In this document: positions 5,901 to 41,620 of the stretch, piece by piece | How the letters are laid out: the number at the start of each line of letters is the position of its first letter | Position numbering within the stretch: position 1 is the first letter of the stretch | Origin: Thermoflavifilum sp. | GTDB lineage: Bacteria; Bacteroidota; Bacteroidia; Chitinophagales; Chitinophagaceae | Assembly (NCBI RefSeq): GCF_014961315.1 | Contig: NZ_CP063141.1 | Span: forward strand, 1,488,001 to 1,552,000 | Direction of reading: 5' to 3' | Length of the DNA stretch: 64,000 nt | Program-made: the position numbers and the translations under genes | Notes under the pieces: generated by a model | The model's database searches: none | Seen by the model: the letters and a program-made list of their open reading frames with translations, nothing else | What the model was told of the DNA's origin: nothing

Positions 5901-7469
5901 TTAACTCCATTTCACCTCAAGGGCATTTGCTAATGTGCTGGGTGCCGTGGCAGGCAATTGCACTACGAGGGCATCGGGTTGTTGTGTCCAGGAAATGGCA
6001 TCATCATATCCCAGCAGGCGTACATGTATTATCCGACCCGGTGATAGTTCGTGCTCACGACCGAGCTGCGGGATGTGTAGTTGCAAGGAGGAAGGCCACC
6101 CCATGAAAAACACATAGAGGCTCTTACCCTTGGTGGTGAAGCGGATATCGTCGGCGGTCAAGGCGTGGCGGTTGCGTTCGTTGAAGCTGGTGCCTTTTGC
6201 AGGCTGGCTGTTGGGGCCGTAGCCGAAGATTTTCCAGGGACGGGTATCATAAATGCCTTCACTGTTGATTTGCATCCATTCCGTAATGGCTTGCAGGATA
6301 GCCAGTTCACGATCGTCGAGCATGCCGCTGTTCGGCAAAGGAAAATTCAGCATCAGGTTGCCATTCCGGCTTACGATATCCACTAACATGTCGATGATCA
6401 TCTTGGGTGTTTTGTAATGCGCCCGCACATCATAATGCCAGTGGCCAATACAGGTATCTGTTTGCCAGGGTCTCGGCCAGATGGTATCCACTACGCCCCG
6501 TTCCACATCCAGCACACAGGTGCCCACCAGGCTGTCTTCCTGACGTTTGCTGGTATAGACGGCTGTTACCTCGCGGCCGCCGTTGCGTTGATAACTGGAG
6601 TTGTAGAGATGGGCTACGATGGCCAGTCCCCAGTCTTCAAACGGGATAGGACCGTCACAGTACAGCAAATCCGGTCGATATTGATCGATTAAATCCTTGA
6701 TGCGTTTAAACCAGTGAGCCTTCCAGCTTTCGGGGATACCGGTTTCATCCCAGCTCAAGTGGGTATGTACGCTGTTGATGTCGTGATAAAAATCCCAGTA
6801 ATCGGGATTTTGTCCGTCGTAGGGTACGCCAGCTTCTGGGCCAGAAAGGTCGCTACCATGGCTGGTGGAAAACCATTTATAGCTGATCCACAGGTGATCG
6901 CTTACGGCGAATTTGAGATCATGTTTAAGGGCTGCCGTCCGGAACAACCCCACGATATCTTTATGTGGACCCATGTTCACCGCATTCCAGCGGTTGTAGG
7001 TCGAATGCCATAAGTCGAAATTATCATGATGCACGCCCATACTCATGAAATAGCGGGCGCCAGCTTTTTTATACAGGCCCACCAGATAGTCGGGATCAAA
7101 GCGATCGGCTTTCCAGGTGGGAATAATGTCTTTAAACCCAAAATGAGAAGGATGACCATAAGTTTTTACATGGTATTGGTATTGATCGCTACCCTGGATG
7201 TACATGTTACGCGCATACCAGTCGCCATACTCGGGTGCCGATTGTGGTCCCCAGTGTGCCCAGATCCCAAATTTGGCATTGCGGAACCATTCCGGTACTT
7301 CATAATGCTGCAAAGACGCACGCGTGGGCTGAAAAGGGCCCGGCGCAATATCGGGTGAAAACCCATTTTTCTTACTGAAACCTGTTGCATGTAGCAGGCG
7401 GGGAATAGCCATGGCCGGTAATCCAGCCGCCATCCATTTTAAAAGGGTACGTCGAGAAATCGGCTGCAT
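5901..7469 (-). CDS. Alpha-L-fucosidase, GH29, with twin-arginine signal
   Basis: Predicted periplasmic or exported exo-fucosidase releasing L-fucose from glycans, 522 residues. The N-terminus has a twin-arginine motif SRRTLLKW (residues 5-12) followed by a hydrophobic stretch and LLHATG, so Tat export is likely. The GH29 catalytic barrel starts at about residue 50 (PEWFRNAKFGIWAHWGP). The likely nucleophile Asp is in DLLYCDGPI (about residue 271). The C-terminal beta-sandwich covers roughly 410-522. No sugar transporter, SusCD pair or other glycosidase is adjacent, so it stands outside a polysaccharide-utilisation locus. Substrate linkage cannot be inferred. Confidence 0.9.
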   Translation of the reverse strand: MQPISRRTLLKWMAAGLPAMAIPRLLHATGFSKKNGFSPDIAPGPFQPTRASLQHYEVPEWFRNAKFGIWAHWGPQSAPEYGDWYARNMYIQGSDQYQYHVKTYGHPSHFGFKDIIPTWKADRFDPDYLVGLYKKAGARYFMSMGVHHDNFDLWHSTYNRWNAVNMGPHKDIVGLFRTAALKHDLKFAVSDHLWISYKWFSTSHGSDLSGPEAGVPYDGQNPDYWDFYHDINSVHTHLSWDETGIPESWKAHWFKRIKDLIDQYRPDLLYCDGPIPFEDWGLAIVAHLYNSSYQRNGGREVTAVYTSKRQEDSLVGTCVLDVERGVVDTIWPRPWQTDTCIGHWHYDVRAHYKTPKMIIDMLVDIVSRNGNLMLNFPLPNSGMLDDRELAILQAITEWMQINSEGIYDTRPWKIFGYGPNSQPAKGTSFNERNRHALTADDIRFTTKGKSLYVFFMGWPSSLQLHIPQLGREHELSPGRIIHVRLLGYDDAISWTQQPDALVVQLPATAPSTLANALEVKWS

Positions 7470-7660
7470 CTATCTGGCTTTTATGAAAATGAAAATACAA
7501 ATTTTTCATGGGCGAGTGTATCATGTTATACCTTATCGTGCAGCTCACGACGCCCAATTCAGCATTCAGCAAATACGGCTAAGGGTCAGCTTCGCCCCTG
7601 TTTATTAAAACTCCGGCATCGGGAACCCCTCGTACGCATGGGTTAGCCCCAAACAGCACA

Positions 7661-9316
7661 TCAATATTTTCCCACGATAGGAATCCGTCGGCCGCGGCCG
7701 AAGGCTTTGGAGGATACCCGGATGATGGGGCAAAACTGATTGCGCTTGTATTCATTTCGGTTGACCATGGGCACCACCTGTTGCACCAGTGCTGGATCGA
7801 AGCCCATATCGATGATTTCTCGTATGGTTTTGTGTTGTTCGATATATTGATACAGGATGGGGTCGAGCTGTTCATAGGGTGGCAGGCTATCGGTATCGCG
7901 TTGTCCGGGTCGGAGTTCAGCCGAAGGGGCTTTGTGCAGGATGGAAGTCGGGATGATCTCCTGCTCGCGATTGAGGTGATATGCCAGGGCATATACCTGC
8001 AGTTTGTACACATCGCCCAGCACGCTCAAGCCTCCGGCCATATCGCCGTAGAGCGTGCCGTAACCCACGGCCAGCTCGCTTTTATTCGATGTGTTGAGCA
8101 GGATATATCCGAACTTATTGGCCACGGCCATCAGGAGGTTACCGCGGATGCGGGCCTGGATGTTTTCTTCAGCCAGTCCGAACGGTCGATCCTGAAATAC
8201 GGGTTTCAGGGTCTGTAAATAGCTGTGGTATATATCGCGGATGGGTATGATTTCATATCGATTGCCCAGGCGTTGGCTGAGCGCTATGGCATCTTCCACA
8301 GACGCGGAAGAAGAATAATCGGAAGGCATGAGGACCGACAGCACCCGGTCGGCGCCCAGGGCTTCACAGGCCAGCACGGTGGTCACCGCACTGTCGATGC
8401 CTCCGGAAGAGCCAATCACACAACGTTCGAATCCCATCTTCGAGAAATAATCCCGGATACCCATCAACAGGGCCTGATGGATGCGATCGATCTGAAATGT
8501 CGGCCTGAGCGTTTGTGTGGAGGCCGGCGGCTGTTGGGTGATGGCAGGCTCATGGGTGAGGTTTTCCAGTTCGATGATCTCAAAGGCTTCTTCAAATGAG
8601 GGTAAATGCCTGACCAGCTCGGCACGTGCATTGAATACCAGCGAGGCGCCGTCGAACACCAATTCGGTTTGTGCACCCACGGTATTGCAATAAATCAGGG
8701 GCACATGATATCGCCGTACATTTTCCCGGATAATTTCAATCCGTTGTTGTTCGTGATCGTAATCAAAGGGTGATGCGGAAATATTGATGATGCAGTCGGG
8801 TTGTTCCTGGATCAATTGATCGAGCGGAGAAAGCCGATATAACCTGGGTTCAACCACATTCCAGATGTCCTCGCAAATGGTAAGGGCGATTTTTTTATTC
8901 CGGAATTGCACACAATGCCAGCTGTCGGCCGGCTCAAAATAACGACTTTCGTCGAACACGTCGTAAGTGGGCAGCAATGTTTTATGCACCACATCCTGGA
9001 TCTGCCCGTCGGACAACAGATAGGCGCTGTTGAAAAGTCGCTTGCCCTGCGGGACAGGATTGCGTGTGGGAGCACCCACGATAACGCCTATGCCCTCGGT
9101 GCAGGTGCTGATTGCTTTGACGGCCGCTTCGCACTGATCGATGAAATCATCCAGTTCCAGCAGATCCATGGCCGGGTAGCCACAGATACATTGTTCGGAA
9201 AACACCACCAGATCGACCTGATGCCGGCGTGCCCGGTCGATGGCCTCTTTCATTCTGGCAATGTTGTATTCAAAATTTCCAATATGGTAATTCTGTTGTG
9301 CCAGCGCAATTTTCAT
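7661..9316 (-). CDS. nadE: Glutamine-hydrolysing NAD+ synthetase
   Basis: Last step of NAD biosynthesis: amidates nicotinic acid adenine dinucleotide using ammonia from glutamine. The protein has 551 residues from the chosen ATG at 9316. The N-terminal nitrilase-like glutaminase (about 1-270) shows the catalytic Glu (FSEQCICGYP), Lys (HKTLLPTYDVFDE) and Cys (LTICEDIW). The C-terminal synthetase shows the PP-loop SSGGIDSA (about 302-309). The frame extends upstream to 9385, but a TATTTTTG -7 element at 9340-9347 lies inside that extension and supports the MKIALAQQNYH start. It diverges from gldB, a neighbourhood also seen in other Bacteroidota. Confidence 0.95.
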   Translation of the reverse strand: MKIALAQQNYHIGNFEYNIARMKEAIDRARRHQVDLVVFSEQCICGYPAMDLLELDDFIDQCEAAVKAISTCTEGIGVIVGAPTRNPVPQGKRLFNSAYLLSDGQIQDVVHKTLLPTYDVFDESRYFEPADSWHCVQFRNKKIALTICEDIWNVVEPRLYRLSPLDQLIQEQPDCIINISASPFDYDHEQQRIEIIRENVRRYHVPLIYCNTVGAQTELVFDGASLVFNARAELVRHLPSFEEAFEIIELENLTHEPAITQQPPASTQTLRPTFQIDRIHQALLMGIRDYFSKMGFERCVIGSSGGIDSAVTTVLACEALGADRVLSVLMPSDYSSSASVEDAIALSQRLGNRYEIIPIRDIYHSYLQTLKPVFQDRPFGLAEENIQARIRGNLLMAVANKFGYILLNTSNKSELAVGYGTLYGDMAGGLSVLGDVYKLQVYALAYHLNREQEIIPTSILHKAPSAELRPGQRDTDSLPPYEQLDPILYQYIEQHKTIREIIDMGFDPALVQQVVPMVNRNEYKRNQFCPIIRVSSKAFGRGRRIPIVGKY

Positions 9317-32320: not shown

Positions 32321-34260
32321 TATTTCGCCTGCAGGCGGGAGGTGCTCACCAGCACTTTTTCCTGCAGCACGCTGCGTACGGTGGCTGCTATGCCTTCGGC
32401 ATCGTAGCCACACTCGTGATGCAGTTCGGCTGGTTTGCCGTGTTCCACCACCCGGTCGGGGATGCCTAAGATGTGCAGCTCGTTGTGGTATCCGTTGAGC
32501 GCCATGAATTCGGCCACGGCACTGCCCAGTCCGCCGATGCGCGCGGCATCTTCCACGGTGATGATGATGGGGAATTCCTGCAAGACCTGATGGAGCAGTT
32601 GTTCGTCAAGGGGTTTCAGAAAACGCATGTCGAAATGCGCCGGCTCAATACCCTCTGTGAGCAGGGTTTTCCGTGCTTCGCCGACGAAGTTGCCCGCATG
32701 GCCTATGGAGAGTATGGCCACTTCTTTGCCTTCGGCTATCTGGCGGCCCTTGCCGATGGGTACCTCCTGAAAAGGCTTGCGCCAGTCGGGCATCACGCCC
32801 TGCCCGCGTGGATAGCGAATCACAAAGGGATGGGTGATATGGGGCAGCTGGGCCGTGTACATCAGGTTGCGCATCTCCACCTCGTTCATGGGGGCGCTGA
32901 TGATTAAGTTCGGGATCGGCCGCAGGTAGGCCAGGTCGTAGGCGCCATGATGCGTGGCCCCATCTTCGCCGACCAGTCCGGCCCGGTCCAGACAGAACAC
33001 CACGGGCAGGTCCTGGATGGCCACGTCGTGGATGAGCTGGTCGTAGGCCCGCTGCATGAAGGAGGAATAGATGGTACAGTACACCTTCAAGCCCTGTGTG
33101 GCCATGCCCGCCGAAAGGGTAACGGCATGTTGTTCGCAGATGCCCACATCGAAAGCCCGGTGTGGCATTTTTTCCATCATGAACTTCAGCGAAGAACCCG
33201 AAGGCATGGCCGGCGTGATGCCGATGATTTTATCGTTTTGCTCGGCCAGCTCCAGCAGCGTCCAGCCAAACACATCCTGGTATTTGGGTGGCTCGGGCGT
33301 GGGCGACACTTTTTTCTGGATTTCCCCGTTCACCTTGTCGAACAATCCCGGTGCATGCCACTTGGTCTGGTCTTTCTCGGCCGGCGCATAGCCCTTCCCC
33401 TTCACGGTGACGATATGTAGCAGCTTGGGCCCGGGGATTTCCTTCAGGTCGATCAGGGTATCCACCAGCTTTTGTACGTTATGACCGTCGATGGGCCCGA
33501 AATAGCGCAGGCCCAGGGCTTCAAAGAGATTGCTGGAGCGGGTGAGCAGCCCTTTCAGGCCGGCCTCGAGTTTGGCCGCCAGCTCACGGGAGATATCGCT
33601 CATGGGCAGTTTGCCCAGTAATTTCCAGATGTCTTGCCGCAGCTTGTTGTAGGTAGGCGAGGTGGTGATATCGGTCAGGTATTCTTTCAGGGCGCCCACA
33701 TTGGGGTCGATCGACATGCAGTTGTCGTTCAGGATGATGAGCAGGTTGGTATCCGACACGCCCGCATGGTTCATGGCTTCAAAAGCCAGTCCGGCCGTCA
33801 TGGCTCCATCGCCGATCACGGCGATATGCTGGCGCTTTGTATCGCCGGCATATTTGGCGGCCAGGGCCATGCCCAGTGCGGCCGAGATGGAAGTCGACGA
33901 ATGCCCCACGCCAAAGGTATCGTAGATGCTTTCGCTGCGACGGGGAAAGCCGCTGATGCCCCCATAGCGGCGGTTGGTATGGAATACCTTACGGCGGCCG
34001 GTGAGGATTTTATGGGCATAGGCCTGATGGCCCACATCCCATACCAGCTGGTCGTAGGGCGTCTGAAACACATAATGCAGCGCCACGGTGAGCTCAACGA
34101 CCCCGAGGTTGGCGGCGAAATGTCCGCCATACACACTCACCATGTCGATGATGTATTCCCGCAGCTCATCACAGAGCAGGTTCAGCTGCTCGCGCGACAG
34201 CTTGCGCAAGTCGTCGGGATATTCGATCTGGCTGAGCAAGGGACCCGGTTGGATATTCAT
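32320..34260 (-). CDS. dxs: 1-deoxy-D-xylulose-5-phosphate synthase
   Basis: First enzyme of the MEP isoprenoid pathway, condensing pyruvate and glyceraldehyde 3-phosphate with ThDP, 646 residues. Motifs: [19 protein letters not shown] (about 45-63), [12 protein letters not shown] (about 78-89), the ThDP motif [15 protein letters not shown] (about 149-163) and, in the transketolase-like C-terminal half, [18 protein letters not shown]. The ATG at 34260 (MNIQPGPLL) fits the family start; upstream in-frame residues to 34326 do not. It diverges from the restriction-modification island. Confidence 0.96.
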
Positions 34261-34411
34261 CGGATGCATGAATAGTTGTGAATTAAAATGTTTACAATAT
34301 ACGGACGAAAAAAGTTCGCAGATCAAACGCGAAAGTTACGACGATTTGGGGAATAAAATCTTTCTTGCCCGGCCCGGCTGCTCGTCGGGTAGCGGATATA
34401 GGGGGCAAAAA

Positions 34412-34442
34412 TTGTAGGAGCAAAATTTTATTGATAGTTTTG
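34412..34442 (+). promoter_or_regulatory. Bacteroidota promoter for the restriction-modification gene
   Basis: TTG at 34412-34414 and TAGTTTTG at 34435-34442, spacer 20, match the host consensus. The ATG at 34479 is 36 bases downstream, so the foreign-looking gene seems to be read from a host-type promoter. Confidence 0.55.
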
Positions 34443-34478
34443 ACGGGAATGTAATCCCGGTAAAATCTTTCATTTCCC

Positions 34479-37400
34479 ATGTCGCCACGCGCTAAACCAG
34501 CCACCTCTTCCAGACGCCAGATTGAAACCTACGAACATCGCGATAAACAGCGCGTCAACAACCCGCCCGCCGGGCTGGTGACGCCCGACACTGACCCAGA
34601 CGCGGGGCAGAAGAAAAAGCGCTATGCCTACGACCCACATCTCGACCCGCAGCTCGTCTGGGCTGGCAAAGCCGAGCACATATCCTTCGAAGTGCCCACG
34701 GTGTCGCTCCATGTGCACGAGCGCATCGATCCCAAGACCATCATCGAGACGGTGCGCAAGAAAAACGGTCAGCCGCAGCCGGTGCAGTTAGGACTGTTCG
34801 AAGAAGAGCGCAAAGAACCCCTGCACGAGGCCATCCAGTTCTACCAGCACAAGCACGACTGGAGCAACCGCCTGATCGCCGGCGACTCGCTCCTGGTGAT
34901 GAACTCGCTGCTGGAAAAAGAGGGCCTGGCAGGCAAGGTGCAGATGATCTATATAGACCCGCCGTATGGCATCAAGTACGGCTCCAACTTCCAGCCCTTC
35001 GTCAACAAGCGCGATGTGAAGGACGGCAGGGACGAAGACCTCACCGCCGAGCCGGAGCAGATCAAGGCTTTCCGCGACACCTGGGAGCTGGGCATTCACT
35101 CCTATCTCACCTACCTGCGCGACCGGCTGCTGCTGGCGCGAGAGCTGCTCACCGAGAGCGGCAGCATCTTCGTCCAGATCAGCGACGAGAACGTTCACCA
35201 CGTACGCGAGTTGATGGATGAGGTGTTCGGGGCGGGAAATTTTGTGAATCTCATTGCCTTTCGGACTCACAGCCCATTAGGGGTGAAGCTCTTGCCCAAC
35301 CCATACGATTACTTGATTTGGTATTCAAAGGACAAATCCAAACTCAAGTACAGACCACTATATGTCTACAAGGACAGTGGTGAGGGAACACAGTTTACGT
35401 ATATCGAAATGAAAGATGGGGCTCGCCGTAGCATGACACGAGATGAGCGGCAGCATCCTGAGCTCACACCAGAAGGCGCAAGGGTTTTTCGCCTAGTCAA
35501 TTTGCCGTCGTCTGGTTACACAGAAAGCTGCACATTCGATTTCATGTTTGAGGGACAGACATACAAGCCTTCGCGGGGGCGAAGTTGGAAGACCACCTTA
35601 GATGGCATGCAAAGGCTCGTGACAGCGAGGCGTGTTTATGCAACAGGCACCTACCTGAACTACGTTTACTTCCTCGACGATTTTCCGCTAAGCAACCTTT
35701 CCGGAATGTGGGCCGATGTCTACACAGAGCTCGATAAGCAGTACGTCGTGCAAACTGGCACGAAGGTTATCGAACGCTGCCTCCTGATGACCACCGACCC
35801 GGGAGACTTGGTCTTCGACCCGACCTGCGGCAGCGGCACCACGGCCTATGTGGCCGAGCAGTGGGGCCGGCGCTGGATCACCTGCGACACCTCGCGCGTC
35901 GCCATCACCCTCGCCAAGCAACGGCTCATGACCGCCGTCTTCGATTACTACGAGCTGGCGCATCCCAATGAGGGCGTGGGCAGCGGTTTCAAATACAAAA
36001 CCGTGCCCCACGTCACGCTCAAGTCCATCGCCAACAACCCGGAGATTGACGGCATCTACGCTCGCATGCATCCGGCCATCGAAAAGGCGCTGGCGGAGCT
36101 GAACGCCGCGCTCAAAGGCAGGCCCATCAAGTTCAAGGTCACACAAGGCGGGCGCGCCGGGCAATTCGTGGACTTCGCTGCGCCGGATTCCGCCACCTTC
36201 ACCCTGCCCGCCGGCCAGGTGGTCAAGGTCAACGAACTGGTGGAGTGGGAAGTGCCGTTTGAGTTTCCAACCGATTGGCCCGATGCAGCCCGCCACTCGT
36301 TCGAAGCCTTCCACGCCGCCCGTCGCGCCATGCAAAACGAAATGGATGCCGCCATCGCCCGCCTTATCATCAACTCCCCTTATGAGGAGCCGCAGCGTCA
36401 CTGGCGCTACGACCGGAACAAACGCACCTTTGAGCTGGTCGAGGGTCGTCGACCGGCGGGGTATGTGGTGGCAACACCAGGTTCAGAATCGTTCGACGAT
36501 CCCGGTAATTTCGTTGAGATTGGGTTGGTCAACCAGATCCGCCCACGTGTCAAGGCCTGGCGCGAGGCGGGCTATCCGGGTGTCACCAGTATCACCAAAC
36601 GCCTGCTCGAGCACTGGCGCGATCCGGAGGAGTTCGAGACCCGTCGGTTCTTCTTTTGCCAGTTGGAGGCAGTAGAAACGCTCATCTGGCTCACCGAAGC
36701 GCCGGCCGCCGAGCGCGTGGGGATCGAGATTCCCGGCGACGGCGGGGCTTTCGTGCGCCAGTGCTGCAAGATGGCCACCGGCACGGGCAAGACCATCGTG
36801 ATGGCGATGGTCATCGCCTGGCAGGTCTTGAACAAGGTGGCTTCGCCGCAGGACGCCCGCTTTTCCAAGAACGTGCTAGTGATCGCGCCGGGGCTCACGG
36901 TGAAGAAGCGGCTGGCGGTTTTGGAACTCTCGGCGGAAGGGAATTACTACGAAGCCTTTGACATCGTGCCCTCAGCGTTGCTCGACAAGCTGCGGCAGGG
37001 TAAAGTGCTGGTCCGCAACTGGCACGCCCTGGCCTGGGAGAGCGAAGAGCAGATCCAGAAGCGTAAGAGTGTGGACAAGCGCGGGGTCAAGAGCGACGAG
37101 GCCTACACGCGTGAGGTCCTGGGCGAGATGGCCAATGCACGTAATATCCTGGTGATCAACGACGAGGCACATCATGCGTGGCGCGTGAACCCGGAAGCGG
37201 TCGGCAAGTATATGCGTCAGCGCGACCTCAAGGACAGCGCCGCCGAAGCCACCGTGTGGATCGGTGGACTCGACCGGCTGAATCGAACGCGTGGCATCCT
37301 CAAGTGCTATGACTTTTCGGCCACCCCTTTCGCCCCTTCGGGTAAGCGAAGCGGCGAAGAAACGCTGTTCGGCTGGATCGTTAGCGACTTTGGCCTGAAC

Positions 37401-38144
37401 GACGCCATCGAGTCGGGGCTGGTGAAAACTCCTCGCGTCGTCATACGTGACGATGCCGTTCCTGACACCACAACATACAAGTCGCAACTGTATAGTATCT
37501 ACAACACCTCCAAGGTAAAAAGCGACCTGAATAGGCGCGCCAAACCTGAAGAACCCTTGCCCGACCTGGTTCTGAATGCCTACCACCTCTTGGGCTACGA
37601 TTGGCGCGAGGCGTGGAAAGCCTGGCGCGCGGCCGGCCAGCCGACGCCGCCGGTGATGATCACGGTCGCCAACCGCACCGAAACGGCGGCGCGCGTGAAG
37701 CATGCCTTCGACACCAAGCGCATTTACATCGACGAGTTGTGCGATCCCGAGCGCGTGCTGCACATCGACTCGAAGGTGCTCGATGAGGCCGAGGCGCGGG
37801 ACGAGCCGGCCGCAGCCGATGCGCCCGAGGAGGAAGAAGGCGAGGCGGAAGAGGAAACTGCTACGTCTCTCGCGCGTAAACTAACCAAGGCGGAGCAGGC
37901 GGAGCGACTGCGGCGGACCGTGGACACGGTGGGCAAGGTGGGGCAGCCCGGGGAGAAGATTCAGAACGTCATCTCCGTTGGCATGCTCTCCGAGGGCTGG
38001 GATGTCAAAACCGTTACCCATATCATGGGCCTGCGCGCGTTCACCTCGCAGCTTCTGTGCGAGCAGGTGGTGGGCCGGGGCTTGCGGCGCACATCCTACG
38101 AGCTGAACCCCGAGACAGGTTTGTTCGATCCGCGGAGTACGTGA
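34479..38144 (+). CDS. Fused Mod-type N6-adenine/N4-cytosine methyltransferase and Res-type helicase (nuclease end lost by frameshift)
   Basis: 1221 residues in two parts. Residues about 60-625 are a beta-class DNA methyltransferase of the type III Mod kind: catalytic DPPY (160-163) precedes the SAM motif DPTCGSG (447-453), with a target-recognition region between them. From about residue 632 (NSPYEEPQRHWRYDR) it reads as the start of a Res-type restriction subunit (BPTD_3080-like). That part has Walker A ATGTGKT (766-772), DEAH (895-898) and motif VI QVVGRGLRR (1196-1204). In related systems these are two genes, and Mod has several hundred more C-terminal residues. The frame ends after GLFDPRST, where a missing G near 38132-38133 would restore DPAEYVNIFG and join the nuclease part. 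Base composition is GC-rich compared with the neighbours. Confidence 0.85.
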   Translation: MSPRAKPATSSRRQIETYEHRDKQRVNNPPAGLVTPDTDPDAGQKKKRYAYDPHLDPQLVWAGKAEHISFEVPTVSLHVHERIDPKTIIETVRKKNGQPQPVQLGLFEEERKEPLHEAIQFYQHKHDWSNRLIAGDSLLVMNSLLEKEGLAGKVQMIYIDPPYGIKYGSNFQPFVNKRDVKDGRDEDLTAEPEQIKAFRDTWELGIHSYLTYLRDRLLLARELLTESGSIFVQISDENVHHVRELMDEVFGAGNFVNLIAFRTHSPLGVKLLPNPYDYLIWYSKDKSKLKYRPLYVYKDSGEGTQFTYIEMKDGARRSMTRDERQHPELTPEGARVFRLVNLPSSGYTESCTFDFMFEGQTYKPSRGRSWKTTLDGMQRLVTARRVYATGTYLNYVYFLDDFPLSNLSGMWADVYTELDKQYVVQTGTKVIERCLLMTTDPGDLVFDPTCGSGTTAYVAEQWGRRWITCDTSRVAITLAKQRLMTAVFDYYELAHPNEGVGSGFKYKTVPHVTLKSIANNPEIDGIYARMHPAIEKALAELNAALKGRPIKFKVTQGGRAGQFVDFAAPDSATFTLPAGQVVKVNELVEWEVPFEFPTDWPDAARHSFEAFHAARRAMQNEMDAAIARLIINSPYEEPQRHWRYDRNKRTFELVEGRRPAGYVVATPGSESFDDPGNFVEIGLVNQIRPRVKAWREAGYPGVTSITKRLLEHWRDPEEFETRRFFFCQLEAVETLIWLTEAPAAERVGIEIPGDGGAFVRQCCKMATGTGKTIVMAMVIAWQVLNKVASPQDARFSKNVLVIAPGLTVKKRLAVLELSAEGNYYEAFDIVPSALLDKLRQGKVLVRNWHALAWESEEQIQKRKSVDKRGVKSDEAYTREVLGEMANARNILVINDEAHHAWRVNPEAVGKYMRQRDLKDSAAEATVWIGGLDRLNRTRGILKCYDFSATPFAPSGKRSGEETLFGWIVSDFGLNDAIESGLVKTPRVVIRDDAVPDTTTYKSQLYSIYNTSKVKSDLNRRAKPEEPLPDLVLNAYHLLGYDWREAWKAWRAAGQPTPPVMITVANRTETAARVKHAFDTKRIYIDELCDPERVLHIDSKVLDEAEARDEPAAADAPEEEEGEAEEETATSLARKLTKAEQAERLRRTVDTVGKVGQPGEKIQNVISVGMLSEGWDVKTVTHIMGLRAFTSQLLCEQVVGRGLRRTSYELNPETGLFDPRST

Positions 38145-39190
38145 ACATCTTCGGCGTGCCCTTTACCTTCTTGCCGCACGAAGGCGGGCAAGACGGCCCG
38201 CCTCCTCCGCCCACGCCCAAGACCGCCGTCGAACCGGACCCGGGCAAGGCGGAGTTCGAGATCCGCTGGCCGAACGTGGTGCGCATCGACCGGGTGTTTC
38301 AACCCACGTTGACACTGGACTGGTCAAAGGCGCGCAACCTCGAACTCAATGCAGCGCAGACGGCGCAGGTGGCGGAGCTGGCGCCGATCCTCGAAGGCAA
38401 GCCCGACGTGACGAAGATCGAGCGCATCGAGCTGGAGCGTCTGGCGCGGGAGTTCCGCACGCAGCGAATCATCTTCGAGACGGCGCGCGACGTGCTCGAC
38501 CAGATGAAGCACACCTGGAAGGGCAGCCGCGAAGTGTTGCTCGCGCAGTTGGTGCGGATCGTCGAGCGGTTCATCGCCTCCGACCGGATCACGATCACGC
38601 CGCCCTTGTTCTACCAGGACGAGCTACGCCGTCGGCTCATCATCACGCTCAACATGTCGCGGGTGGTACAGCACGTGTGGGAGGCGGTGCGGCAGGAGAA
38701 TACCGAGCGGCTTACCCCGGTCTTTGACCGCGACCATCCCATTCGCTCCACTGCGGACATGCGCACCTGGTACACGGGCAAGCCGTGCGAGCGAACGAGG
38801 AAGTCGCACATCAACGTCTGCGTGTACGACAGCACATGGGAGGCGTCCGATGCCTTTATGCTCGACAACAGCGACGTGGTGGCCGCCTGGGCCAAAAACG
38901 ACCACCTGGGGTTCGAAGTGCTCTACGTGTATCGCGGCGTGGTGCGGAAGTACCGGCCGGATTTTCTCGTGCGGTTGGCTAACGGCGACATGCTGGTGCT
39001 GGAGACGAAAGGTCAGGACACCGAACAGGATCAGGTCAAACGCCGCTATCTGGACGAATGGGTGCAAGCGGTGAACGCGCATGGCGGCTTCGGCCATTGG
39101 CGATGGGCGGTTGCACAACACCCTGGCGAGATTCGGGATGTGCTCCAGCGATGCTTAGCGTCGAGGATGGAGCCTATCAATCGCATCTGA
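38135..39190 (+). pseudogene. C-terminal part of the Res subunit with PD-(D/E)xK nuclease, out of frame
   Basis: About 351 codons continuing the restriction subunit from EYVNIFGVPFTFLPHEGG. They include the region after the helicase and a terminal nuclease core: PD at 38957-38962 in YRPDFLV and E-x-K at 39002-39010 in VLETKGQD. It is one base out of frame with the upstream gene, and no plausible ribosome site or start was seen at the break. The simplest reading is a one-base deletion, real or from assembly. If real, the nuclease is not made and the methyltransferase may persist alone. Confidence 0.8.
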
Positions 39191-39591
39191 AGGCCATCTG
39201 CTAAATGGAACATTGCCTCATTTTCCTATTAGTAAGATTGGTTTTTTCTTGGTTGTCAGTTAATTTTACGAATTAATCTTCGCATCGATTACGGACGTGC
39301 GATGTTTAGAATTAGTTAGAATGAGCATAGTAAAGATGACAGTGCAGCATGAGTATTTGAACAAAATCAGAATTATATTAATACTGTTGAAGCATTCGAT
39401 AAGAAATTTCCTCCATAGGAAACAATCGTCTGAGTGTAGGGGACCGGTGGATAGTATAGAGATATAGATTGCGTAAATGCGTGTTAGGCAGCAGTCAGAT
39501 AAATAAAGTTATTGATTATGCCTGTGGTCTTTAGCTCAGGCCTTTTGATAATCAGGGGCGTGAAAAATTAAGAATAAGAATTTCTTTGATT
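39191..39591. other. 401-base non-coding, AT-rich stretch between the Res fragment and a methyltransferase gene
   Basis: No credible gene, tRNA or insertion-sequence end was found. Composition switches abruptly from the GC-rich island to AT-rich. A weak hairpin, GCCTG/CAGGC with TTTTG after it, lies near 39519-39547. TCGCA...TGCGA forms another short inverted pair at about 39281-39303. It may be decayed insertion DNA. Confidence 0.5.
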
Positions 39592-40317
39592 ATGAAGAGC
39601 TCAAACAGATACGGATATACCGAGCGTTTATTTTCTGGAGGACTTCGAAGCAAGCTGCATTATGCAAGATTTCACTGGTTCAAGACTAAAGTTGAAAGAT
39701 TAAATTGTCAGATTAGCTCTGTGTTGGAGTTGGGATGTTTTGATGGGAAGTTGATTACTTTTTTCCCAAGTAAGCCATTAAGGTACGTTGGATTCGATGC
39801 AAATTGGGAGGGTGGGTTAGATATAGCGAGGTCAAAATGGGCAGATGAACCGAATTTCTTTTTTTACGAAGCTAGTTCACCGGAGGATATGCATCTCGAG
39901 AAAGATGATATTTTTAGTATCGCGGTTTCAATGGAAACACTTGAACACGTTCCTCCTCAGATGGTTGATGGGTATCTACGAAAGATAGCTCAACATCTCG
40001 ATGGATATTTTTTCGTTACAGTCCCGAATGAAAAAGGGATTCTTTTCCTTACAAAGTGGTTGATCAAGAAGACATTGAGAGCTGATGTACAGCATTACAC
40101 TATTTCTGAGTTGATCAACGCAACTTTAGGAAGAATGGATCGGGTGGCTCGTCGGGAACATAAAGGGTTCGATTATGATCTGCTCATCAAACAAATAGCG
40201 CAATATTTCGATGTCATTGATGTTTCTGGAATTCCGTTTGGATGTTTTCCTCCCTCACTTTGTTTCGGGATCGGTATTGTGGCCAAATCTAAGAAATCCA
40301 TATCTATACCTGAGTAA
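39592..40317 (+). CDS. SAM-dependent methyltransferase (class I), AT-rich, likely acquired
   Basis: 241 residues. The SAM-binding loop is SSVLELGCFDGKLITFF (about 43-59), followed by YVGFDANWEGG with the acidic ribose-binding residue, and SMETLEHVPP (about 111-120), the late motif of Methyltransf_11/23-type enzymes. The ATG at 39592 is preferred over the in-frame TTG at 39586. Codon use and base content are clearly more AT-rich than either flank. Such enzymes are often found in O-antigen or natural-product clusters. The substrate is unknown and no such cluster is adjacent. Confidence 0.8.
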   Translation: MKSSNRYGYTERLFSGGLRSKLHYARFHWFKTKVERLNCQISSVLELGCFDGKLITFFPSKPLRYVGFDANWEGGLDIARSKWADEPNFFFYEASSPEDMHLEKDDIFSIAVSMETLEHVPPQMVDGYLRKIAQHLDGYFFVTVPNEKGILFLTKWLIKKTLRADVQHYTISELINATLGRMDRVARREHKGFDYDLLIKQIAQYFDVIDVSGIPFGCFPPSLCFGIGIVAKSKKSISIPE

Positions 40318-40356
40318 GGCGCTTCTTAGCGGCGATTCTGCAGTGCCCATTTTATG

Positions 40357-40387
40357 CCTGTAGGGGAAGCTTGTGATTCCCCTACGG
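40357..40387. repeat. Long perfect inverted repeat at the right edge of the accessory island
   Basis: GTAGGGGAA (40360-40368) pairs with TTCCCCTAC (40377-40385) across eight bases, extendable by two outer pairs. No T tract follows on either strand, so it is not a standard terminator. It lies between the AT-rich methyltransferase and the sensor kinase. Confidence 0.6.
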
Positions 40388-40433
40388 ATGGGTCATGATC
40401 TTAAACTATAAAAAAACTGCAACAAAATATTCC

Positions 40434-40453
40434 GATACTAGTATCCCCCCCCA
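40434..40453. promoter_or_regulatory. Perfect palindrome GATACTAGTATC adjoining a C9 tract
   Basis: GATACTAGTATC (40434-40445) is a perfect 12-base palindrome. Its last C begins a run of nine Cs (40445-40453), about 80 bases before the LytS-like kinase start. It could be an operator and the C run a slippage-prone tract. No TAnnTTTG promoter was found near it. Confidence 0.4.
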
Positions 40454-40534
40454 CGCTTATCCTCAAAATTTTCCACTGGTCAAAAAGGGATATCATGCTT
40501 GGGCTGAAAAGCCTACTTTTGAAAAGAAAAGCGG

Positions 40535-41620
40535 ATGTTCAGGCGGGTGCGCACATATTACTGGTGGTGCCAGATCGGCGGCTGGATGGCTTTCTGGTTG
40601 TTCAGTACCCTGGTGAGCTACATGTATAGCCAGAGCGTTACCCTGCAATCGCTCATCGACCGCACGGTGTTCATCCTGGCTGGCATCGGGGTTACCCATG
40701 CTTTTCGCCTGTTCATCCTCCACAGGCAATGGCTGCAGCTGCGGCTCGACAGGCTCATCTGGCGTATGTTGCTGGGTGTCGTCGCCAGCAGTGTGCTGAT
40801 TACCGCCATCGTGGATGCTTATAAGTATGCCTTTCACCTGATGACGCCTCAGGAAAAATCCTTTGAATTCGGCCGGTTTTTCAGCGTATTCATCATCATC
40901 CTCATCTGGTCGCTGATTTATATTTTATGGCACTATGTGGAAAAGGAGCGCAAATATCAATTCGACCGGCTGCGGCTGGAGTCGATGGTGAAAGAGTTAC
41001 AGCTCAAGACCATCAAATCGCAACTCAATCCGCATTTTATCTTCAACGCACTCAACAGCATTCGCGCGTTGATCGAAGAAAATCCCGCAAGGGCACGCGA
41101 AGCCGTCACCGAGCTGTCGAACATCCTGCGCAACTCCATGCAGGCCGAAAAAGCCGAAACGGTATCGCTGGAAAACGAGGTGGCCATGGTGCGCGATTAT
41201 CTGGCGCTGGAGATGATTCGCTTTGAAGAGCGCCTGGAGGTGAACCTGCACATTGATCCCGCTACGCTAGCTTTGCCCGTACCGCCCCTCATGTTGCAAA
41301 CGCTGGTGGAAAATGCCGTCAAGCATGGCATTTCCCGGGCCGTGCAGGGTGGGCGAATAGACGTTGTCTCGCATCGGGTGCAGGGGTTTCATGAGATTAT
41401 CGTGCGCAATACGGGTAAGCTTGCCGGTTCCGGTCTGGAGCCGGGTTTTGGCTTGCGGAGTACCTGCCAGCGGCTGGAAATTTTGTTCGGCCAGGAGGCG
41501 AGTTTCGATATCCGTGATGCGGGCGACCGGCTGGTAGAAGCGCGGGTGCGCATTCCGCTGGCCGCTCAGGAGCGGCTGCAGCGCGAGCAATCGGTTCAAC
41601 AAGCATATAAAACGTTTTAA
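40535..41620 (+). CDS. LytS/YehU-type sensor histidine kinase
   Basis: 361-residue membrane kinase. Four N-terminal helices lie at about 12-31, 43-62, 76-97 and 113-135, followed by a short coiled coil. The His_kinase domain has the phospho-acceptor in LNPHFIFNALNSIRALI (His167). The ATP-binding region is marked by LVENAVKHGIS (about 257-267) and a GFGLRSTCQRL glycine-rich loop. There is no periplasmic sensor, so the membrane domain itself may sense. It is paired with the LytTR regulator 13 bases downstream. Confidence 0.93.
   Translation: MFRRVRTYYWWCQIGGWMAFWLFSTLVSYMYSQSVTLQSLIDRTVFILAGIGVTHAFRLFILHRQWLQLRLDRLIWRMLLGVVASSVLITAIVDAYKYAFHLMTPQEKSFEFGRFFSVFIIILIWSLIYILWHYVEKERKYQFDRLRLESMVKELQLKTIKSQLNPHFIFNALNSIRALIEENPARAREAVTELSNILRNSMQAEKAETVSLENEVAMVRDYLALEMIRFEERLEVNLHIDPATLALPVPPLMLQTLVENAVKHGISRAVQGGRIDVVSHRVQGFHEIIVRNTGKLAGSGLEPGFGLRSTCQRLEILFGQEASFDIRDAGDRLVEARVRIPLAAQERLQREQSVQQAYKTF

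What the first reader, a model, noticed from the sequence alone, without database searches (positions are those of the whole stretch)
34479..38144. Single-chain fusion of a truncated Mod-type methyltransferase to a Res-type helicase
The frame runs without a stop from a beta-class DNA methyltransferase (DPPY at 160-163, DPTCGSG at 447-453) straight into what looks like the native N-terminus of a Res-type subunit (about residue 632). In the two-gene relatives I know, Mod continues for several hundred residues past this point. The junction at about 36351-36372 therefore looks like a deletion that removed the Mod C-terminus, the stop and the Res start while keeping frame. A one-polypeptide methylase-helicase-nuclease would be an unusual restriction architecture.
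Basis: partly seen in the sequence, partly recalled or inferred. Interest (0 to 1): 0.6.

Follow-up and report, generated by a model that had tools for sequence, protein, structure and literature searches.

The report
Broken, deletion-fused type III restriction system
A two-gene bacterial DNA-restriction system has been damaged by a 1-kb in-frame deletion that fuses its methylase to its helicase and by a frame break that cuts off its nuclease, so this looks like a recently inactivated copy and not a new single-protein restriction enzyme.

Summary
The open frame 34479-38144 (1221 aa) is real and joins a beta-class Mod methyltransferase to a Res helicase. It is not a one-polypeptide methylase-helicase-nuclease: the Res match stops at profile position 631 of 970, and the rest of Res, with the PD-(D/E)XK motif, lies in another frame (ORF 38057-39190). 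At that point the window is two bases longer than 72 of 79 aligned relative loci.

The junction is a deletion of about 1.03 kb relative to compact two-gene relatives. It removed about 337 Mod residues, the Mod stop and the first few Res codons, across 36349-36363, which matches both parents. None of 83 other distinct Res starts and none of 65 other loci with both genes is fused.

Both sides of the frame break are as constrained as in ten intact relatives (dN/dS about 0.09), so the damage looks recent. The site is a defence hot spot: two of four congeners are empty there, two hold other type III-like systems.

Best reading: a restriction-dead copy of a known type III-like system whose methylase may still work. 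Reads could not be checked.

The parts
34479..38144 (+). Fused open frame, 1221 aa: Mod without its C-terminal region, then Res without its first codons and without its nuclease
34479..36362 (+). Mod-derived part (residues 1-628); DPPY at 34956-34967, DPTCGSG at 35817-35837
   Evidence: PF01555, PADLOC MTase_III PDLC03632 profile 76-611 of 983, motif positions
35240..35790 (+). Approximate central region between the two methylase halves, likely the target recognition domain; lower G+C and poorly matched by relatives' DNA
   Evidence: gap between blastn matches q~760 and q~1264-1290, G+C 0.496 at 35250-35749; TRD assignment inferred from the beta-class order described for EcoP15I
36349..36363 (+). 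Deletion junction: 15 bp matching both the Mod side and the Res side of relatives
36363..38128 (+). Res-derived part in frame 1: MATGTGKT 36771-36794, DEAH 37161-37172, SATPF 37317-37331, QVVGRGLRR 38064-38090
   Evidence: NF046055 residues 627-1218
38129..38135 (+). Frame break in Res: net two bases more than in 72 of 79 aligned relative loci
38057..39190 (+). Second open frame: Res remainder (from about 38135) with the PD-(D/E)XK nuclease, PDFLV 38957-38971 and LETKG 38999-39013
   Evidence: NF046055 profile 630-968 of 970
38141..38144 (+). GTGA: a GTG codon of the second frame overlaps the stop of the first; possible but untested re-initiation site
39586..40317 (+). SAM methyltransferase-like ORF on the same insert (AT-rich), no evident link to the restriction genes
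   Evidence: PF13489, G+C 0.37-0.41

Best explanation
This is a recently damaged copy of a two-gene, type III-like restriction-modification system (large Mod plus a BPTD_3080-family Res). Shown by comparison: (1) an in-frame deletion of about 1.03 kb took away the Mod C-terminal region, the Mod stop and the Res start, and fused what was left; (2) a two-base length change in Res breaks the frame after the helicase and cuts the nuclease off. Inferred: if expressed, it yields a methylase-helicase chimera without nuclease and without the Mod region that, by analogy with the EcoP15I CTD, docks Res, so restriction is lost. The methylase core and central region are intact, and in EcoP15I Mod dimerises through its N-terminal and methylase domains, so methylation may survive. 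The deletion most likely arose by slippage or short-homology recombination between similar 15-bp stretches. Losing cutting while sparing the methylase is a common direction of decay (general knowledge, recalled).
For: Two profile pieces of one Res in two frames; net two-base excess against 72 of 79 relative loci; deletion diagonals of 1028-1040 bp in four compact relatives and 13-15 bp overlap of the two matches in six; native Res start missing; no fusion in 65 other two-gene loci or 83 other Res starts; lost region holds 76 invariant columns; dN/dS before and after the break like ten intact relatives, so recent damage; defence turnover at the site, with a congener keeping only a stub that matches Mod residues 3-42.
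Against: The same low dN/dS could mean the pieces are still used. The methylase and helicase motifs are intact. The two-base excess was not seen as exactly two bases in 7 of 79 relatives. Parental sequences of this strain are unknown; microhomology in relatives is only 8-10 of 15, and 0.24-4.9% of in-frame background pairs do as well. No reads or expression data.
Confidence: 0.8

Rival explanations
1. Methylation-only survivor: the chimera is an active, selected orphan methyltransferase with a helicase appendage, the restriction half being ballast. It overlaps with the best explanation but adds present selection.
For: Methylase motifs and central region intact; the EcoP15I Mod dimer forms through NTD and methylase domains, not the CTD (PMC4490356, passages); low dN/dS.
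Against: The lost C-terminal region is strongly conserved in 44 Mods, so a Mod without it may not fold or work; one genome only; a recent lesion gives the same dN/dS.
Confidence: 0.25
2. Re-partitioned working enzyme: a covalent methylase-helicase chimera plus a separately re-initiated nuclease half, still restricting.
For: GTGA overlap at 38141-38144 allows coupled re-initiation; the nuclease half is open to its end and under the same constraint.
Against: The GTG encodes a V of a stretch that relatives keep, so it is there by chance; no relative has this layout; two independent lesions in one operon are the usual look of decay.
Confidence: 0.04
3. Sequencing or assembly artefact at the junction, at the frame break, or both.
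For: Reads were not available; one base-level error would suffice for the frame break.
Against: One contig, 100% complete, one copy; the similar stretches are too short to collapse an assembly (inference); no gene split between frames against congener G007 in 67 window ORFs and 91 G007 ORFs with a homologue, overlapping loci counted twice (16 and 37 of these had in-frame stops in the partner, which I took for shadow ORFs without checking each).
Confidence: 0.07
4. Established family of natural Mod-Res fusions.
For: the genome search printed open frames of 1809-1957 aa over both genes in G122, G215, G547 and G769.
Against: Read out, G122, G547 and G769 have a TAA between the genes, and both G215 loci have frame shifts or stops. 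In 27 positive genomes of 400 no match runs more than 32 residues past the junction.
Confidence: 0.03

Closest known systems
Two-gene systems of large Mod (PADLOC MTase_III PDLC03632) and BPTD_3080-family Res (NCBIfam NF046055), e.g. L006, L003, L114
   Same: Mod core, central region, Res helicase and nuclease sequences, gene order, 80-87% Res identity to the nearest
   Different: They keep the Mod C-terminal region, a Mod stop, a Res start and an unbroken Res frame; the window has none of these
EcoP15I (type III, Mod2Res1; PDB 4zcf)
   Same: Beta-class Mod with DPPY; top Foldseek match of a relative's whole Mod; Mod CTD that contacts Res (PMC4490356, passages)
   Different: Separate subunits, short CTD (539-644); sequence match limited to residues 128-289 of the window's chain
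Type ISP enzymes (single polypeptide; LlaGI, LlaBIII names recalled)
   Same: ATP-dependent motor and methylase in one chain (PMC6158711, passage)
   Different: Order recalled as nuclease-helicase-methylase-TRD; the window is methylase-helicase with the nuclease cut off
RM.Eco29kI, engineered R-M fusion (PMC3039593, abstract seen)
   Same: Shows that fusing R and M genes can keep both activities
   Different: Type II, engineered, and the abstract speaks of no domain removed

Membership tests
Type III restriction-modification system | Beta-class Mod methylase with catalytic DPPY and AdoMet motif | tested here: met
   PF01555, DPPY and DPTCGSG, MTase_III profile
Type III restriction-modification system | Res subunit with SF2 helicase and C-terminal PD-(D/E)XK nuclease in one chain | tested here: not met
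   Helicase motifs in frame 1, nuclease in another frame
Type III restriction-modification system | Mod and Res as separate subunits | tested here: not met
   One open frame over the methylase and helicase parts
Type III restriction-modification system | Mod2Res1 assembly, ATP-dependent cleavage of two inverted sites | not testable with these tools
   Needs biochemistry
BPTD_3080 family restriction endonuclease (NF046055) | One protein reaching the curated score of 800 | tested here: not met
   791 bits for the fused chain, 372 for the second frame; together profile 2-968 of 970
Large Mod of these two-gene systems (PDLC03632 type) | Conserved C-terminal region of about 330 residues | tested here: not met
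   Absent from the window; 76 invariant columns in 44 relatives
Type ISP single-polypeptide enzymes | Nuclease, motor, methylase and TRD in one chain in that order (order recalled) | tested here: not met
   Order is methylase then helicase, nuclease not in the chain
EcoP15I Mod CTD equivalence of the lost region | Same fold and position | tested here: inconclusive
   Whole-Mod model aligns to 4zcf_A up to its last residue 644 at model residue 814, but the model is poor (pTM 0.39; rmsd 21.8); 4zcf is not among the listed rows for the region alone

The most novel reading that the evidence does not exclude
The two lesions re-partitioned a type III enzyme instead of killing it: a covalent methylase-motor chimera that no longer needs the Mod docking region, plus a nuclease half re-initiated at the GTGA overlap, together still restricting phage with a forced 1:1 Mod-to-motor ratio.
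Probability: 0.04. Interest if true: 0.6.

Novelty: new member of a known kind. Interest (0 to 1): 0.2.

Why it matters
As it stands, the locus shows how a two-gene restriction system can be disarmed in two small steps while its methylase frame is spared, at a chromosomal site that swaps defence systems between close relatives. If the chimera were active it would be a natural single-chain methylase-motor of type III descent and would allow a direct test of whether the Mod C-terminal region serves only to dock Res. There is no evidence of activity, so the finding is a case of gene decay and of modest interest.

Tried and rejected
Established-family reading: not borne out. The open frames of 1809-1957 aa that the genome search printed for G122, G215, G547 and G769 dissolved when read out: TAA between the genes in G122, G547 and G769, frame shifts or stops in both G215 loci.

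Alternative native Res start: of the 86 motif rows printed, none but the window's own copy has the window's MQNEMDAAIAR before LIINSPY.

Phage records: no match at E 1e-30. Plasmids: 41 records; of the 30 listed, 23 carry a methyltransferase and a separate restriction feature, and 7 have fewer or other labels; I did not read out the frames. IMG/VR: 7 loci, in each of which Mod ends at its own stop.

Literature: searches for a Mod-Res fusion gave nothing relevant in the 17 papers listed or in the 20 of 265 listed; BPTD_3080 is in no paper held. These cover only open-licence PMC papers, so I do not claim that none is in print.

Structure: the whole-Mod model is poor (pTM 0.39); the lost region alone is better (pTM 0.61) but has no Foldseek hit at E <= 0.001 and no convincing Pfam or PDB sequence match. 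EcoP15I is not listed for the region alone, which does not exclude it.

Counts that need care. The first Mod C-terminus count used a wrong motif pattern (0 rows) and was redone (10 rows, 9 with a stop inside the locus; the lowest value, 218, is from L046, whose Mod lacks the usual end). In one search, 7 of 79 relatives gave a net difference other than two bases (four -3, one +5, two +10). In one search five of these have Res in one frame (L012, L033, L064, L072, L073), L035 is split by an in-frame stop elsewhere, and L132 was not in that call; I take the odd values as alignment edge effects, unproved. Loci include a few near-identical pairs (for example L027 and L083, L082 and L114). Starts near a locus edge are cut, and sees only starts that fit its motif. 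Promoter scan: nothing above shuffles. tRNA scan of the window: none. Repeats in 34250-40560: one 18-bp direct pair and one 16-bp inverted pair, neither at the junction.

Full report
Observation. The frame 34479-38144 (1221 aa) is open as described. Pfam finds N6_N4_Mtase at residues 154-480 and ResIII at 760-902. DPPY and DPTCGSG are at the stated residues. PADLOC gives MTase_III PDLC03632 over profile 76-611 of 983, so the Mod end is missing. NCBIfam gives NF046055, BPTD_3080 family restriction endonuclease, over residues 627-1218 = profile 2-631 of 970, at 791 bits against a cut-off of 800.

The frame does not hold the nuclease. The next ORF, 38057-39190, matches the same profile from 630 to 968 and carries PDFLV and LETKG within 38957-39013. 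At 38129-38135 the window has a net excess of two bases against 72 of 79 relative loci that align across the site; the other seven gave other values (see Tried and rejected). The fused chain therefore ends shortly after QVVGRGLRR, helicase motif VI by general knowledge.

Relatives. One scan of the GTDB genome contigs found 474 stretches encoding relatives, of which the best 80 were kept. Whole-genome searches found matches in 44 of 395 genomes of the phylum, own genome included, in 11 of 394 of the family, including the own genome and G007's unrelated type III Mod at 35%, and in 27 of 400 genomes of the phylum of L006, a record titled Chloroflexi bacterium. Counting the window, 66 loci had both genes on the + strand; only the window has them in one frame. 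Of 84 distinct Res starts, only the window's has 200 or more open residues upstream of the Res motif; the median is 20 and the next value 178. In one search no match crosses the junction by more than 32 residues. In compact relatives the genes touch or overlap, for example Mod 5992-8874 and Res 8871-11714 in L006. In G122 (same class), G547 and G769 (same family) Mod and Res lie in one frame with a single TAA between them, so a full-length fusion would be one mutation away there; none was seen.

Junction. In blastn against L004, L006, L008 and L024 the left (Mod) and right (Res) diagonals differ by 1028-1040 bp. In these four and in L011 and L046 the two matches overlap by 13-15 bp; L011 and L046, whose genes lie further apart, give 1521 and 2713 bp. 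In other relatives the left match ended earlier, so they do not place the break. The Res N-terminus in relatives is M..TTIDRLIINSPYEEP; the window reads ..AMQNEMDAAIARLIINSPYEEP, Mod up to AIAR and Res from LIINSPY. Nine complete Mods that carry the junction motif have 218-344 residues beyond it, median 337. Identity of the two parental 15-bp stretches is 8-10 of 15 in six relatives; 0.24-4.9% of in-frame background pairs are as good. A short-homology deletion is thus likely but not proved.

What was lost. In 44 aligned Mods, 76 of 334 residues after the junction are invariant, against 104 of 626 before it. The region alone, from 40 sequences, is modelled with pTM 0.61. Its first half (model about 51-195) resembles PD-(D/E)XK proteins: 2vld_A, a repair endonuclease, Z 9.7 over 102 residues at rmsd 2.5; EndoMS 5gkj_B Z 9.1; 1y88 Z 8.6; AspBHI Z 7.7; MspJI Z 7.6; RNA polymerase subunit E chains also appear at Z 6-7. 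Foldseek gives no hit at E <= 0.001. The strand where E-x-K would be expected reads VVVSFGP in the consensus, so a catalytic nuclease is unlikely (inference). In EcoP15I the Mod CTD contacts Res extensively, and the Mod dimer forms through the NTD and methylase domains (PMC4490356, passages). By analogy the window lost a Res-docking region and kept the dimer and methylase parts; the equivalence of the two regions is inconclusive.

Age of the damage. Mean dN/dS of the window's Res is 0.092 before the break and 0.088 after it; ten intact relatives give 0.089-0.121 and 0.078-0.094. Apart from the two lesions the frames are open over the roughly 4.7 kb. The lesions are therefore young compared with the divergence from known relatives, or the pieces are still used; the first is simpler.

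Artefact check. The genome is one contig of 2.83 Mb, 100% complete, with one copy of the locus. Against congener G007 no gene was split between frames in either direction; in-frame stops in partners of 37 of 91 and 16 of 67 ORFs were taken as shadow ORFs without checking each. The restriction locus itself has no counterpart in G007 beyond the stub, so it is not part of that control. Reads were not available.

Setting. In all four congeners searched (G007, G496, G565, G615) both flanks match the window: the gene read here as dxs (name recalled) and a histidine kinase (PF06580). G565 and G615 have about 270 bp between the matched flanks, that is, no insert. G007 holds a stub matching Mod residues 3-42 at 65% identity and a different type III pair; G496 holds a DrmD-like helicase, an MTase_III, an REase_III and a protein with weaker capP/RmrA matches. 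The site is a defence hot spot, and in G007 a related Mod survives only as a stub.

Known fusions. An engineered type II R-M fusion keeps both activities (PMC3039593, abstract), and type ISP enzymes join a motor and a methylase in one chain (PMC6158711, passage), so a working fusion is not absurd in principle. Nothing here shows one.

Conclusion. A restriction-dead, recently damaged copy of a known two-gene type III-like system, with a methylase that may still work. The working-enzyme reading keeps a small probability through re-initiation at the GTGA overlap (38141-38144).

Noticed in passing
window 34360-40500; L124 (G007), L174 (G496), L175 (G565), L176 (G615): Defence hot spot between dxs (name recalled) and a histidine kinase: empty in two congeners, filled with other type III-like systems in two others.
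   Followed up: partly
L006 Mod residues about 682-826 (region model residues 51-195): The C-terminal region of these Mods is modelled with a PD-(D/E)XK-like fold without an evident E-x-K, followed by a beta-rich part; no Pfam family covers it.
   Followed up: partly
G122 (L111), G547 (L157), G769 (L156): Mod and Res lie head to tail in one frame with a single TAA between them, one stop codon short of a full-length fusion.
   Followed up: partly
Mod alignment A1, L006 residues about 515-632: Mods come in two length classes: 7 of 44 have 79-118 residues between the methylase core and the C-terminal region, 37 have 10-27. The window's Mod matches the long class.
   Followed up: no
window 39586-40317: SAM methyltransferase-like ORF of 37-41% G+C beside the 59-66% G+C restriction genes, so the insert is probably composite.
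   Followed up: no
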